Positions 3,148 through 7,520 of a stretch of 43,790 nt of DNA are shown here, piece after piece (within the stretch, counting starts at the first letter, position 1; each line of letters opens with the position of its first letter). The translations under genes and the position numbers were made by a program. Below the pieces are notes generated by a model. It was not told the origin of the DNA, ran no database searches, and saw nothing but the letters and a program-made list of their open reading frames with translations. This stretch comes from a virus, in IMG/VR virus record IMGVR_UViG_3300020123_000400, positions 1 through 43,790 of that record. One strand, written 5' to 3'.

Positions 3148-4301
3148 GCCAACACGCGAGGTTCGCGCCGAGCGCGGCCCACCGGTGGCTCAACTGTCCC
3201 GGGTCGGTCGCGCTCGCCGAGTCCCTGCCGCCGGCGGAGCGCCGCGAAGGCGGCGACTCGGAGGAGGCACAGGAGGGCACGAAGGCGCACGCGCTGGCGG
3301 CGCAGGCGCTGCAATTCGCGATCGACGGCGTCCCCATGCTGTACGGGGCCGACGTCCCCGAAGAGATGCAGGAGGCAATTCACCTGTACGTCACGACGGT
3401 GATGGCGGCCGTTCGCCCCGGCGACGAAGTCCTGGTCGAGCGGAAGGTGAAGCTCGACGACGACCTGTGGGGCACCCTCGACGCCGCCGTCGTGCACCTG
3501 GCGGACCTGTCGGTTGAGATATTCGACTTCAAGTACGGGGTCGGGGTCGTCGTCGAGGCGATCTCGAACGAGCAGGGCGGCATCTACCTGCTCTCCCTCG
3601 CCGAGTACGCGAGTCTGCGGCCGGCGAAGTTCACGATCGTGCAGCCGCGCGCCGGGCACAAGGACGGGCCGGTGCGCTCGTGGGAGCCGCACCCCGGGGA
3701 GTTGCGGCGCCTGCGGCAGCGGGCGGAGGCGGCGATCGACAAGGGCAAGCGCCAGTATGCGCCCCTGGCGGCCGGCGAGTGGTGCCAATTCTGCCCCGCG
3801 CGCGGTCACTGCCCGGAGTTGTCGCGGCACGCGCAGTTGGTGGCGGCGACCGAGTTCGAGGTGGTGGCGGAGCCGGCCGTGCAGGACGTCGTCGCTGCGC
3901 TTCCGATTGAGGCGGTCGTGGCGGCGCTCGCAAAGACGAAGGTGATCGAGATTTACCTGAAGGCGATGCGCGACCGCATCGAGAAGGACCTGAACGACGG
4001 CCGCCCCGTCCCCGGCTGGAAGCTGGTGGCGAAGCGCCCGCGACGCGTGTGGAATAGCGTCGACGAGGTGCAGACCTGGGCGGAGTCGGCGGGGCTCGAC
4101 TTCTTCGACTACTACGAGCCGGCGGTGATGAAGTCGCCGGCGCAACTCGAGGCGGTGATCGGGAAGAAGAACCTCCCCGAGGTGCTGTACTCGAGCGTGA
4201 GCAGTGGGGCGACGATCGCCCCGGCAGACGATCCGCGGCCGGCGCTTGCGAGCGCGGCCTCGGAGGACTTCGCGGCCCTTCCGTCGGGAGATGCGGAATG
4301 A
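3144..4301 (+). CDS. DUF2800 family PD-(D/E)XK nuclease
   Basis: 385 residues, ATG coupled to the previous gene. The N-terminus (RFAPSAAHRWLNCPGS, then EGTKAHALAAQAL) is typical of DUF2800 phage proteins related to RecB/Cas4 nucleases. The active-site Asp and xDFK elements appear as GTLDAAVVHL and VEIFDFKYG, and WCQFCPARGHCPEL provides a Cys cluster that can hold an Fe-S centre or zinc. In many phages this gene sits next to a DUF2815 protein and a DNA polymerase, as here, so a role in replication or recombination end-processing is likely. The C-terminal 60 residues are low-complexity and poorly conserved in type. Confidence 0.88.
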   Translation: MSQHARFAPSAAHRWLNCPGSVALAESLPPAERREGGDSEEAQEGTKAHALAAQALQFAIDGVPMLYGADVPEEMQEAIHLYVTTVMAAVRPGDEVLVERKVKLDDDLWGTLDAAVVHLADLSVEIFDFKYGVGVVVEAISNEQGGIYLLSLAEYASLRPAKFTIVQPRAGHKDGPVRSWEPHPGELRRLRQRAEAAIDKGKRQYAPLAAGEWCQFCPARGHCPELSRHAQLVAATEFEVVAEPAVQDVVAALPIEAVVAALAKTKVIEIYLKAMRDRIEKDLNDGRPVPGWKLVAKRPRRVWNSVDEVQTWAESAGLDFFDYYEPAVMKSPAQLEAVIGKKNLPEVLYSSVSSGATIAPADDPRPALASAASEDFAALPSGDAE

Positions 4302-4639
4302 GATTAGGACACGAAAGTGCCTGTACGAGAAAAGCGGTAGAGTGGCCGACGAGCGGAGCGCTACGGTGGGCGGCCGGCTTTCTTGAAGGCGAAGGTGCGT
4401 TTCAGCGCAACTGCGGGTCGGCACGCGTAAGCGCGTCGCAGACCTACGAACGCGACCCGCTGACTCGGTTGTTGCGGATGTTTGGTGGCAGTGTGCGAAA
4501 AGAAAAAGCGGGACATTTTGTATGGACAGTTAGCGGTGCTCGAGCGCGCGGGGTGGCACTAACTGTGTTTTCCTTCATGTCGCCGCGCCGGAAGGCGCAG
4601 ATTACGGCGATGTTCGCGCGAGACAGAAAAACAGTCTAA
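4298..4639 (+). CDS. LAGLIDADG-type homing endonuclease, single motif
   Basis: 113 residues, ATG overlapping the TGA of the DUF2800 gene. WAAGFLEGEGAF at about residues 24-35 matches the LAGLIDADG helix (xAGFxDGEGxF form); TRLLRMFGGSVR and the late MSPRRKAQI stretch fit the rest of a small one-motif homing enzyme, which would act as a dimer. The codon mix is less G+C-rich at third positions (for example AGA, AAA, TTT) than in neighbouring genes, suggesting a recent arrival between the DUF2800 and DUF2815 genes. Confidence 0.75.
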   Translation: MRLGHESACTRKAVEWPTSGALRWAAGFLEGEGAFQRNCGSARVSASQTYERDPLTRLLRMFGGSVRKEKAGHFVWTVSGARARGVALTVFSFMSPRRKAQITAMFARDRKTV

Positions 4640-4649
4640 GGAGGTTCCT

Positions 4650-5243
4650 TTGGGAAAGTATCCTTGGAAGCGAGACGACGTCAAGGTCTGGACGACCGAT
4701 ATGACGCTCTCGTTCCCGAACCTGCTGAAGCCGGTCATTCCCGACAACGGCGGGACGCCGAAGTACTCGGCCTCCCTCGTCTCGGACGTGAACGAGTCGA
4801 AGCAGACGCTGCAGGAAGCGATCGTCACGGCCGCCATCGCCGAGTGGGGCGAGAAGGCGATCACGATGCTGAAGGCGGGTGAGATCGTCAACCCGATCCG
4901 CACGGACGCGGAGAAGAAAGGCTACCCCGCGGGCTCGTGGTTCCTGAACGTGCGGTCGGAGCGGAAGCCGGGCGTCGTGCAGCCGTTCGATCAGGACGGC
5001 GACGGCAAGCCGGACCCGATGACGGAGGAGCAGATCGAGAAGAAGATGTACCCCGGGGCGCGGGTGAAAGCCACTATCGTGGCCTTCACGTATGTGTACA
5101 TGGGGAAGAAGGGTGTGAGCTTCGGCCTCAACAACCTGCAGTGGGTTGGCGACGGTCCCAGGCTCGACGGCGGCAAGCCGGCGACGGAGGACTTCGACAT
5201 CGATCCGGCCGCCGTGCCCGCTGAGATCGGCTTCAACAGCTAA
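4650..5243 (+). CDS. DUF2815 family ssDNA-binding protein
   Basis: TTG start with an ideal AAGGAGG ribosome site five to six bases upstream; no ATG or GTG fits better. 197 residues starting (M)GKYPWKRDDVKVWTTDMTL. The pattern (SFPNLLKPVIPDNGGTPKYSASLV, then GSWFLNVRSERKPGVV, YPGARVKATIVAFTYVYMGKKGVSFGLNNLQWV) is that of DUF2815, an OB-fold ssDNA-binding protein family of phages and prophages. It probably coats single-stranded DNA during replication with the polymerase and helicase downstream. Confidence 0.85.
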   Translation: MGKYPWKRDDVKVWTTDMTLSFPNLLKPVIPDNGGTPKYSASLVSDVNESKQTLQEAIVTAAIAEWGEKAITMLKAGEIVNPIRTDAEKKGYPAGSWFLNVRSERKPGVVQPFDQDGDGKPDPMTEEQIEKKMYPGARVKATIVAFTYVYMGKKGVSFGLNNLQWVGDGPRLDGGKPATEDFDIDPAAVPAEIGFNS

Positions 5244-5249
5244 GCTGGT

Positions 5250-5429
5250 GGTGCGGTGTCCTACTGTGCGGCGGCAGCCGCCTGACTGGACCCGATACGT
5301 ACTCCGCGCAACCGACAAGTAGGACATCGGTGTGTCAGCACCGGAGAGTCGATAGTGGGCCGCGGCACGGGCGTATCAGAAGGGAGTAGGCTCTGACAGC
5401 CGTGTGGGGTTCGAGTCCCCACCCGCACC
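5250..5429 (+). ncRNA. Candidate tRNA-like structured RNA, about 180 nt
   Basis: This stretch lies in a 318-bp gap between the DUF2815 and polymerase genes. GGTGCGG (5250-5256) can pair with CCGCACC (5423-5429) as a tRNA-like acceptor. A canonical T-arm (TGGGG, loop TTCGAGT, CCCCA) lies at 5404-5420. TGTCCTACT (5257-5265) pairs perfectly with AGTAGGACA (5318-5326), directly abutting the acceptor helix. Hairpin CGGTG-TGTCAG-CACCG (5328-5343) has a loop complementary to CTGACA (5393-5398), which is the loop region of a GGCT/AGCC hairpin, so a kissing interaction is possible. No anticodon arm can be recognised. It could be a degenerate or unusual tRNA, a tmRNA-like relic, or a new phage RNA. Confidence 0.5.
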
Positions 5430-5561
5430 TTGAGCGCACGACCCGGCAGGAGGTTGGCCCGCCGGAGGGTTACAAGCAGCCGATACGGCACAGCGGAATG
5501 TGGGACGTCGCCGGCGACCGACCACCGCGCGCTCTTCGCTTCACACAACGAAAGGGAACGC
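5430..5561 (+). other. Non-coding leader of DNA polymerase gene
   Basis: Between the structured RNA and the polymerase ATG. An in-frame extension of the polymerase is open here, but its translation (Arg/Ser/Ala-rich) shows no exonuclease sequence, and the exonuclease motif I starts only four residues after the ATG at 5562. The region ends with an AAAGGGA ribosome site. No promoter is convincing. Confidence 0.4.
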
Positions 5562-7520
5562 ATGCGGCTATTCCTAGACTTCGAGACGCGATCGACAGTT
5601 GAGCTTCGGCGCTCGGGCGTCTACAAGTACGCCGCCCACACGGACACGTCGATCTGGTGTATGGCGTGGGCGTTTGAGGGTAACGAGGACGAGCCGGCGC
5701 TGTGGTACGCTGGCGAGCCCCTGCCGGAGGCGGTCGTTGTCCATGCCACCGCGGGCGGCGAGTTGTGGGCGCACAACGCGGCGTTCGAGCGAATCATGTG
5801 GCGCGACTGCGCGATCCCTACCTATGGCTTCCCGGTAGTCAGGGACGACCAATGGTTCTGCACCGCCGCGGAGGCTGCCGCCCTCGCGCTGCCTCGCCGG
5901 CTCGAGCAGGTGTGCGACGTCCTGCGCCTGCCGGTGCGGAAGGATATGGAGGGACACCGGCTCATGCTGCAGATGTGCCGCCCGCGGCGCTTCGAAGACA
6001 ACGGGACGCCCGTGTGGTGGGACGACGCGGCGAAACTGCTGCGCCTGGGGCAGTACTGCGCGACGGATGTGAAGGCGGAGCGACTGCTCTTCAAGGCACT
6101 ACGCCGACTGTCGCCCGACGAGCGCGCGATCTACCTCCACAATGAGGCGATGAACGACCGCGGCGTGGCGATTGACCTGGAACTCGCCGGCGCCGCCCAG
6201 AAGCTGGCGAAGCACGAGATCGCGCGACAGAACCGGCTGATGCGGGATGCGACGAAGGGGAAGGTCGACAAAGTCACGAAGGTGGCGAAGCTAAAGGAGT
6301 GGGTCGCCGCCCAGGGGCTCGAGACCGACACCCTCCGCGCGAAGGTGCTAGACGGGCTGATCGTCGAGTCGAAGGAACTCGAGCCGGAAGTCGAGATCGC
6401 GCTGCAGGCGCGAAAGGAAGCAGCGAAGTCGTCCGTGTCAAAGCTGCAAGCCATGTTCGACGTCGCCGACGCCGACGGCCGCGCCCGCGGGCTGCTCCTG
6501 TATCACGGCGCCTCAACCGGTCGCGACACCGGGAAGTACATTCAGCCGCAGAACATGCCGCGCGGGCTCGAGGTGAAGAAGCACGAGGAGGAGTGGATCG
6601 CGCGGGTGCTGGACGGCACGTTGCCGGAGGCCGCCGCGGCGGACGGTCTGACGGTGCTGACGGTGCTGTCGGGGCTGCTCCGCTCGATGCTCGTGCCGGC
6701 GCGCGGGCAGGCGTTTTTCTGCGGCGACTACGCGCAGATCGAGGCCCGGATCGTCGCCTGGCTCGCCGACTGCTCGCTCATGCTGGACCAGTTTCGCGAG
6801 AAGCGGCCGATCTACCTCGAGATGGCGGAGGCGATCTTTCGCCGGAAGATCACGAAGGACATGCCCGAGTACACGATCGGGAAGTCCGCCGTCCTCGGCT
6901 GCGGATTCGGACTCGGGCGGGAGAAGTTCGCGACGCAATTCGACGCGACGCCCGACATCGCTGATCGAGCGGTGACGGCCTACCGGGAGACCTACCCCGA
7001 GATCGTCGACTTCTGGGCGCACCTGAACCGGGCCGCTCTGAACGCGGTCGGGACGCCCAAGACGACGTACCAGGTCGGGCGGCTCCAATTTCGGCGCGAG
7101 GGCGCCTTCCTGTGGATTCGCCTGCCGTCGAAGCGGCTCCTCGCCTATCACATGCCGGCGATCATCCAGCGGCCGATGCCGTGGGACAAGTCGGACATCC
7201 GGCCGGCGGTCGAATACTCCGGCTTCAACAGCTACACGCACCAGTGGGAGCGACTGGCGATGTACGGCGGACTGATCGCGGAAAACGTCACGCAGGCGAT
7301 CGCGCGCGACGTGATGATGGCCGGCGCCCTGCGGACGGAGGCGGCCGGCTTCGCCACCGTCTTGAAGGTGCACGATGAAGTGCTCGCGGAGGCGCACGAG
7401 AGCCTGCGGGTGCAGGGCGGCGTGAAGGTCTTCAACGATCTCCTCGAGGTGGCGCCCGCGTGGGCGGACGGACTTCCCATCGCCGCCGAGTCATGGTGCA
7501 GCACGAGGTACAAGAAATGA
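5562..7520 (+). CDS. Family A DNA polymerase with 3'-5' exonuclease
   Basis: ATG at 5562 behind AAAGGGA; 652 residues. The N-terminal DEDD exonuclease: motif I FLDFETRS at residues 4-11, motif II around LWAHNAAFERIMW, motif III YCATDVKAERLLF. The polymerase domain: motif A FCGDYAQIEARIVAWLA, motif B around KDMPEYTIGKSAVLGCGFG, motif C KVHDEVLAEA. All catalytic Asp/Glu residues are present, so both activities should be intact. It is the replicative polymerase, working with the prim-pol/helicase two genes downstream and the DUF2815 protein upstream. Confidence 0.96.
   Translation: MRLFLDFETRSTVELRRSGVYKYAAHTDTSIWCMAWAFEGNEDEPALWYAGEPLPEAVVVHATAGGELWAHNAAFERIMWRDCAIPTYGFPVVRDDQWFCTAAEAAALALPRRLEQVCDVLRLPVRKDMEGHRLMLQMCRPRRFEDNGTPVWWDDAAKLLRLGQYCATDVKAERLLFKALRRLSPDERAIYLHNEAMNDRGVAIDLELAGAAQKLAKHEIARQNRLMRDATKGKVDKVTKVAKLKEWVAAQGLETDTLRAKVLDGLIVESKELEPEVEIALQARKEAAKSSVSKLQAMFDVADADGRARGLLLYHGASTGRDTGKYIQPQNMPRGLEVKKHEEEWIARVLDGTLPEAAAADGLTVLTVLSGLLRSMLVPARGQAFFCGDYAQIEARIVAWLADCSLMLDQFREKRPIYLEMAEAIFRRKITKDMPEYTIGKSAVLGCGFGLGREKFATQFDATPDIADRAVTAYRETYPEIVDFWAHLNRAALNAVGTPKTTYQVGRLQFRREGAFLWIRLPSKRLLAYHMPAIIQRPMPWDKSDIRPAVEYSGFNSYTHQWERLAMYGGLIAENVTQAIARDVMMAGALRTEAAGFATVLKVHDEVLAEAHESLRVQGGVKVFNDLLEVAPAWADGLPIAAESWCSTRYKK

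What the first reader, a model, noticed from the sequence alone, without database searches (positions are those of the whole stretch)
5250..5429. Candidate novel tRNA-like structured RNA between DUF2815 and DNA polymerase
Seen directly: 7-bp acceptor-type pairing at the ends, a canonical T-arm with loop TTCGAGT, a perfect 9-bp helix TGTCCTACT/AGTAGGACA starting right after the acceptor strand, and a hairpin loop TGTCAG complementary to a second loop CTGACA (kissing interaction). The total is about 180 nt, too long for a tRNA, with no anticodon arm. It sits in one of the few non-coding gaps of a very compact genome. It may be a new phage RNA, a tmRNA-like relic, an intron-containing tRNA, or the trace of a tRNA-derived attachment site.
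Basis: partly seen in the sequence, partly recalled or inferred. Interest (0 to 1): 0.78.

Follow-up and report, generated by a model that had tools for sequence, protein, structure and literature searches.

The report
tRNA-mimicking RNA between two phage genes
A soil phage carries a 180-base RNA shaped like an oversized transfer RNA that lacks a codon reader, placed exactly between its DNA-binding-protein gene and its DNA-polymerase gene; related phages have other tRNA mimics, some shrunk to the bare top half of a tRNA, at the same spot, which suggests a signal for cutting or separating the message rather than a working tRNA.

Summary
The element is real. At 5250-5429 there is a perfect 7-bp acceptor stem and a T-arm with a canonical T-loop. 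The only close homologue (L002, same junction) shows that the whole RNA folds as an enlarged tRNA cloverleaf: acceptor, D-position arm, an 84-nt arm in place of the anticodon arm, a variable-arm hairpin, and T-arm. All 49 pairs are kept and five carry compensatory changes. There is no anticodon, and ARAGORN and Rfam find nothing.

The larger finding is synteny. T-arm hairpins concentrate at the DUF2815(SSB)-polA junction of related phages: 7 of 16 lie in 2.2% of the sequence (P about 2e-8). Their interiors range from nothing (a 12-bp minihelix) to 180 nt. A relative has tRNA-Tyr there, and two isolated phages have tRNAs there. Many others have hairpins or terminators. Only the acceptor/T-arm minihelix is constant.

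Best explanation: an intercistronic tRNA mimic cut by host RNase P and/or RNase Z, separating SSB mRNA from polymerase mRNA. The tRNA-like nature and the synteny are shown; cleavage is inferred. Rivals: tRNA genes in decay, or a trans-acting tRNA-like RNA.

The parts
4650..5243 (+). Upstream gene: DUF2815 / Enc34-type, Gp2.5-like ssDNA-binding protein
   Evidence: PF10991 6.2e-23; phrog_112 5.6e-28
5250..5256 (+). Acceptor stem, 5' strand GGTGCGG, 6 nt after the stop codon
   Evidence: pairs 7/7 with 5423-5429; kept in L002 with one G-U
5258..5291 (+). D-position arm: GTCC/GGAC stem with an inserted hairpin (5266-5283) of divergent sequence
   Evidence: consensus fold; positions 13-38 only 9/22 identical to L002
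5294..5377 (+). Long arm in the anticodon position: helices 5294-5300/5371-5377, 5304-5308/5361-5365, 5312-5316/5355-5359, 5323-5325/5348-5350, 5327-5331/5340-5344
   Evidence: all pairs kept in L002, 4 pairs with compensatory changes in this arm
5333..5338 (+). Tip loop TGTCAG, possible kissing partner of 5393-5398
   Evidence: 5-nt complementarity here, 4-nt in L002 with changed sequence; P 0.002 and 0.03; tentative
5389..5401 (+). Variable-arm-like hairpin GGCT-ctgac-AGCC
   Evidence: compensatory C-G to G-C change in L002
5404..5422 (+). T-arm GTGGGG-TTCGAGT-CCCCAC with canonical T-loop
   Evidence: sequence; T-arm enrichment at this junction in relatives
5423..5429 (+). Acceptor stem, 3' strand CCGCACC; no CCA encoded
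   Evidence: sequence
5562..7520 (+). Downstream gene: family A DNA polymerase
   Evidence: PF00476 5.2e-17

Best explanation
The element is a tRNA-derived, anticodon-less RNA that serves as an intercistronic punctuation mark between the ssDNA-binding-protein gene and the DNA-polymerase gene. Shown: it folds as an enlarged cloverleaf whose pairs are conserved between two phages, and related phages carry tRNA mimics at the same junction in which only the acceptor/T-arm minihelix is constant. Inferred: this minihelix, the minimal substrate of the tRNA-maturation enzymes, is recognised in the polycistronic mRNA by host RNase P (cut just after the SSB stop codon) and/or RNase Z (cut after the acceptor 3' end). 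Cutting would separate the SSB message from the polymerase message, so that the two are made or decay in different amounts. The large conserved interior of the window version would add rigidity or a second, unknown interaction.
For: (1) W and L002: 49 of 49 pairs kept, five with changes on both sides, none when slid by 1-3 columns; hairpin tips diverged (11 of 35 identical) while the rest is 125/141 identical and unpaired core bases 47/51. (2) T-arm hairpins in 61 non-redundant DUF2815 loci: 7 of 16 fall within 300 nt downstream of the DUF2815 stop on the sense strand, 2.2% of the strand-bases, P 2e-8. (3) Forms at that junction: L044, an uninterrupted 12-bp minihelix 7 nt after the stop; L049/L050, a 9-bp one; L058, 61 nt; L056, 63 nt; L057, 98 nt; L043/L026, tRNA-Tyr; L002, 176 nt. 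All but L049/L050 also have a 7-bp acceptor, which has a chance of 7% per case. (4) Isolated phages: Achromobacter phage Axy14 has tRNA-Pro, and Croceibacter phage P2559Y an odd 88-nt tRNA, between the same two genes. (5) Other relatives have terminator-like hairpins there, 10/61 against 20/610 background windows, never together with a T-arm, so the spot tends to carry an expression boundary. (6) Literature: acceptor+T-arm hairpins are cleaved by E. coli RNase P, RNase P cuts polycistronic mRNAs, and the first mRNA reported as its substrate was T4 gene 32 (PMC11143913). From general knowledge, gene 32 encodes the T4 ssDNA-binding protein.
Against: No expression, cleavage or host data exist. 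Only two copies of the large form are known. None of the examined metagenomic elements encodes CCA, which bacterial RNase P prefers. A minihelix needs no interior, so the conserved interior of W and L002 is not explained by punctuation alone. Most relatives lack a tRNA mimic. The full tRNA-Tyr in L026 could be an ordinary translation tRNA.
Confidence: 0.5

Rival explanations
1. tRNA genes in decay: the SSB-polA junction is a hot spot where phages acquire tRNA genes, and the aberrant forms are pseudogenes losing or gaining arms.
For: A complete tRNA-Tyr (L026), tRNA-Pro (Axy14) and truncated or odd tRNAs (L056, P2559Y) occur at the junction; L028 also has a 122-nt tRNA with an expanded anticodon-position arm elsewhere.
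Against: In all but L049/L050 the acceptor is intact although decay should hit it as well as the missing arms; L044 is an uninterrupted 12-bp minihelix; W/L002 show compensatory changes and conserved unpaired bases.
Confidence: 0.25
2. A trans-acting tRNA mimic: the RNA is released and acts as a decoy or sponge for a tRNA-binding factor (EF-Tu, CCA enzyme, tRNA-modifying enzymes, a tRNA-cutting defence nuclease).
For: Conserved core and possible kissing loop in W/L002 imply a defined three-dimensional RNA; the minihelix is also the part seen by EF-Tu and the CCA enzyme (general knowledge).
Against: The fixed position between the same two genes and the minimal forms argue for a role in cis; there is no anticodon loop to attract anticodon nucleases.
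Confidence: 0.15
3. A tRNA interrupted by an intron in the anticodon region.
For: The extra sequence sits mostly in the anticodon-position arm.
Against: No Rfam group I or II match; too short for known group I introns (general knowledge); the D-position loop is also expanded and not conserved; no excision restores a D-loop plus anticodon. ARAGORN finds no tRNA.
Confidence: 0.04
4. A tRNA-derived phage attachment site (attP).
For: The T-arm plus acceptor 3' half is what tyrosine integrases use in many tRNA genes (general knowledge); L026 has an integrase.
Against: No Phage_integrase match in W, L002, L028, L044, L050 or L057; the 5' acceptor strand and upstream helices are conserved, which an attP does not need.
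Confidence: 0.03

Closest known systems
RNase P-processed tRNA-like structures in mRNAs and phage RNAs (E. coli polycistronic operon mRNAs, C4 antisense RNA of P1/P7, T4 gene 32 mRNA; reviewed in PMC11143913)
   Same: tRNA-like or RNase P-sensitive structure inside a longer transcript; the T4 case is also an ssDNA-binding-protein mRNA (gene identity from general knowledge).
   Different: Here a true T-loop and 12-13-bp acceptor/T stack recur at one junction across phages; cleavage untested; no RCCA end.
tRNA punctuation of mitochondrial transcripts
   Same: tRNAs between genes cut by RNase P and RNase Z to release mRNAs.
   Different: Those are functional tRNAs; most of these lack an anticodon or whole arms.
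Phage tRNA genes (e.g. the eight of T4)
   Same: Some relatives have an ordinary tRNA at this spot.
   Different: W and L002 have no other tRNA and no readable anticodon here.
tmRNA
   Same: tRNA acceptor/T-arm domain with a long arm in place of the anticodon stem.
   Different: No tag ORF, far shorter, no match to tmRNA models.
MALAT1 mascRNA
   Same: tRNA-like element within a longer transcript, cut by RNase P and RNase Z (general knowledge); weak Rfam echo of the T-arm region.
   Different: Score 14.7 against a gathering score of 42.5, i.e. not a member.

Membership tests
Canonical tRNA | 7-bp acceptor and T-arm with TTCRANY loop | tested here: met
Canonical tRNA | Anticodon arm with 7-nt loop and readable anticodon | tested here: not met
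   84-nt arm; tip loops TGTCAG and ATTCGCCA not conserved
Canonical tRNA | Recognised by tRNA models | tested here: not met
   ARAGORN 0, Rfam none, RF00005 none in G000
tmRNA | tag ORF and tmRNA model match | tested here: not met
   no ARAGORN tmRNA, no Rfam match; loops not conserved
Group I intron in tRNA | Rfam group I model match and core | tested here: not met
   helix order does not fit P3-P7 (own reading of the fold)
tRNA-type attP | tyrosine integrase encoded in the phage | tested here: not met
   PF00589 absent from G000 and the L002 contig; contigs may be incomplete
Intercistronic tRNA-like processing element | Acceptor/T-arm minihelix between two co-directional genes, conserved in position | tested here: met
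Intercistronic tRNA-like processing element | Cleavage by RNase P or RNase Z in the transcript | not testable with these tools
   needs RNA from infected cells or an in vitro assay

The most novel reading that the evidence does not exclude
A previously undescribed class of phage intercistronic tRNA mimics at the SSB-polymerase junction, in which only the acceptor/T-arm minihelix is under constraint and the interior ranges from nothing to a 150-nt structured domain, exploiting host tRNA-maturation enzymes to cut phage mRNA.
Probability: 0.45. Interest if true: 0.78.

Novelty: new variant of a known kind. Interest (0 to 1): 0.62.

Why it matters
If right, phages would use degenerate tRNAs as cut-here marks for host RNase P and RNase Z, as mitochondria use real tRNAs, to set the ratio of ssDNA-binding protein to polymerase. 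It would explain odd, anticodon-less phage 'tRNAs' that gene finders miss or call pseudogenes, give natural minimal substrates for RNase P and RNase Z (the L044 minihelix), and show how a tRNA gene turns into a regulatory RNA. In W and L002 it adds a new structured RNA with an enlarged cloverleaf.

Tried and rejected
Rfam with permissive thresholds gave only a weak mascRNA echo. blastn against phage records: no match. Pattern scans for the W/L002 core found only L002 and chance hits: Devosia L041, which has no acceptor/T-arm, and L131, where the match lies inside a lipoprotein-like ORF. The scan GGAGTAGG...GGTTCGAGTCC returned ordinary or unrelated tRNAs and other matches plus L002. I considered a pseudoknot TACTCC/GGAGTA (5300-5305/5383-5388), conserved but without variation, so untested. 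The D-loop-like motif CAAGTAGGACA (5316-5326) could form a small hairpin with one compensatory pair, but it competes with the better-supported tip hairpin. An RNA covariance model was not built because only two sequences exist. Promoter and terminator scans of 5000-5700 found nothing. The isolates without a T-arm (Stiles, Emery, Staphylococcus phage 320, RcSimone-Hastad, ZQG1, Mae-Yong1326-1 and others) have plain hairpins or terminators after the SSB gene.

Full report
WHAT IS THERE. The window is a virus record. It looks like an SU10-like podophage: portal PF23899 and major capsid PF17236. Between the gene for a DUF2815/Enc34-type, Gp2.5-like ssDNA-binding protein (4650-5243; PF10991, phrog_112) and the family A DNA polymerase gene (5562-7520; PF00476) lies a gap of 318 nt. 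The first 180 nt after a 6-nt spacer are the element. The acceptor stem (5250-5256/5423-5429) is perfect and the T-arm (5404-5422) carries the loop TTCGAGT. ARAGORN and Rfam see nothing. Folding energy is not unusual for this base composition (z -0.86), so the case rests on comparison.

THE HOMOLOGUE. The only close relative in IMG/VR is a 44-kb contig (L002, also fetched as L003, L005, L025 and L042). It has 88% identical DUF2815 protein, 81% identical polymerase, and the element in the same place. The two RNAs are 77% identical over 176 aligned positions, but the differences are concentrated: 9/22 identical in the D-position insert, 1/8 and 1/5 in two hairpin loops, 125/141 elsewhere, and 47/51 among unpaired core bases. 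Both sequences fold separately into the same cloverleaf-like design, with acceptor and T-arm pair probabilities of about 0.9 or higher except the terminal G-U of L002 (0.72). All 49 consensus pairs are kept and five have compensatory changes; no slid version has any. With two sequences this is good but not overwhelming support.

The coordinates, acceptor and T-arm are right. The 9-bp helix is not kept (6 of 9 in L002) and is not rare by chance (6.8% of mononucleotide shuffles). It would also cross the long arm. The loop-loop complementarity is rare in the window (P 0.002), and a different 4-nt complementarity exists between the same two loops in L002 (P 0.03), so a kissing interaction remains possible. 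An arm is present in the anticodon position, but it is 84 nt long and has no conserved loop, so this is not a decoding tRNA.

THE JUNCTION IN OTHER PHAGES. I took 78 DUF2815 loci and looked for T-arm hairpins anywhere in them, on both strands. After removing near-duplicates (61 loci), 7 of 16 such hairpins lie within 300 nt after the DUF2815 stop on the sense strand, which is 2.2% of the strand-bases (P 2e-8). The test was made after the first cases at this junction had been seen, and it includes L042, which is the L002 contig; the window itself is not counted. The elements are very different objects. L044 is an uninterrupted 12-bp acceptor/T minihelix and nothing else. L049/L050 have a 9-bp minihelix. 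L058 (the same contig as L028) has 61 nt, with only a small hairpin between the acceptor and the T-arm. L056 has a 63-nt truncated tRNA. L057 has 98 nt with two T-arms. L002 has 176 nt and the window 180 nt. L043/L026 have tRNA-Tyr(GUA), found by ARAGORN. All but L049/L050 have a full 7-bp acceptor, which was not part of this T-arm search and has a 7% chance per case. Among isolated phages, Achromobacter phage Axy14 has an annotated tRNA-Pro between the same genes, and Croceibacter phage P2559Y an unannotated, aberrant 88-nt tRNA. Other relatives have strong hairpins or terminators right after the SSB gene: terminator-like in 10 of 61, against 20 of 610 background windows, and never together with a T-arm.

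INTERPRETATION. What stays constant is the acceptor/T-arm minihelix and its place a few nucleotides behind a stop codon. What varies freely is everything a tRNA needs for decoding. The minihelix is the part recognised by tRNA-end-processing enzymes: E. coli RNase P cuts acceptor-plus-T-arm hairpins, cuts polycistronic mRNAs and phage C4 RNA, and the first mRNA reported as its substrate was T4 gene 32 (PMC11143913), the gene of the T4 ssDNA-binding protein (general knowledge). I therefore think the element marks a cut between the SSB and polymerase messages. Steps shown: tRNA-like fold, conservation, synteny. Steps inferred: transcription as one mRNA, cutting by RNase P and/or RNase Z, and the effect on the SSB-to-polymerase ratio. 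The interior of the W/L002 form is conserved beyond this need and may have a further role that I cannot name.

LIMITS. Hosts are unknown, all close relatives are metagenomic, and the large form is known from two phages only. The neutral alternative (tRNA genes in decay) keeps about a quarter of my belief, and a trans-acting mimic somewhat less. No paper found in the searched library describes such junction elements; that library is partial.

Noticed in passing
L028:2829-2950: A second tRNA-like gene in the L028 contig, 122 nt, Rfam tRNA 42 bits, with a near-normal D-arm but a greatly expanded anticodon-position arm, just upstream of the DUF2800 gene: the same design as the window element.
   Followed up: partly
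L057:4167-4266: 98-100-nt tRNA-like element with two complete T-arm hairpins, one nested inside; the polymerase start codon follows about 2 nt after the acceptor 3' end with no Shine-Dalgarno, so a cut there would leave a leaderless mRNA.
   Followed up: partly
L058:4069-4135: The polymerase ATG follows about 6 nt after the tRNA-like element, again without a Shine-Dalgarno.
   Followed up: no
window 4298-4636: Small ORF upstream of DUF2815 with a weak match to a phage HNH-endonuclease family (phrog_5046); a similar-looking ORF sits between DUF2815 and polA in L045.
   Followed up: partly
L124:1798-1885 (Croceibacter phage P2559Y): Unannotated aberrant tRNA with a 4-base anticodon call (gcaa) by ARAGORN between SSB and DNA polymerase genes.
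   Followed up: no
DUF2815 loci, first 60-130 nt after the stop codon: The gene is often followed by a strong hairpin or an intrinsic terminator.
   Followed up: partly
L012:8973-9012 and L018:7340-7381: Other phage tRNA-like genes missed by ARAGORN with inserts or missing arms, seen as by-catch of a pattern scan.
   Followed up: no
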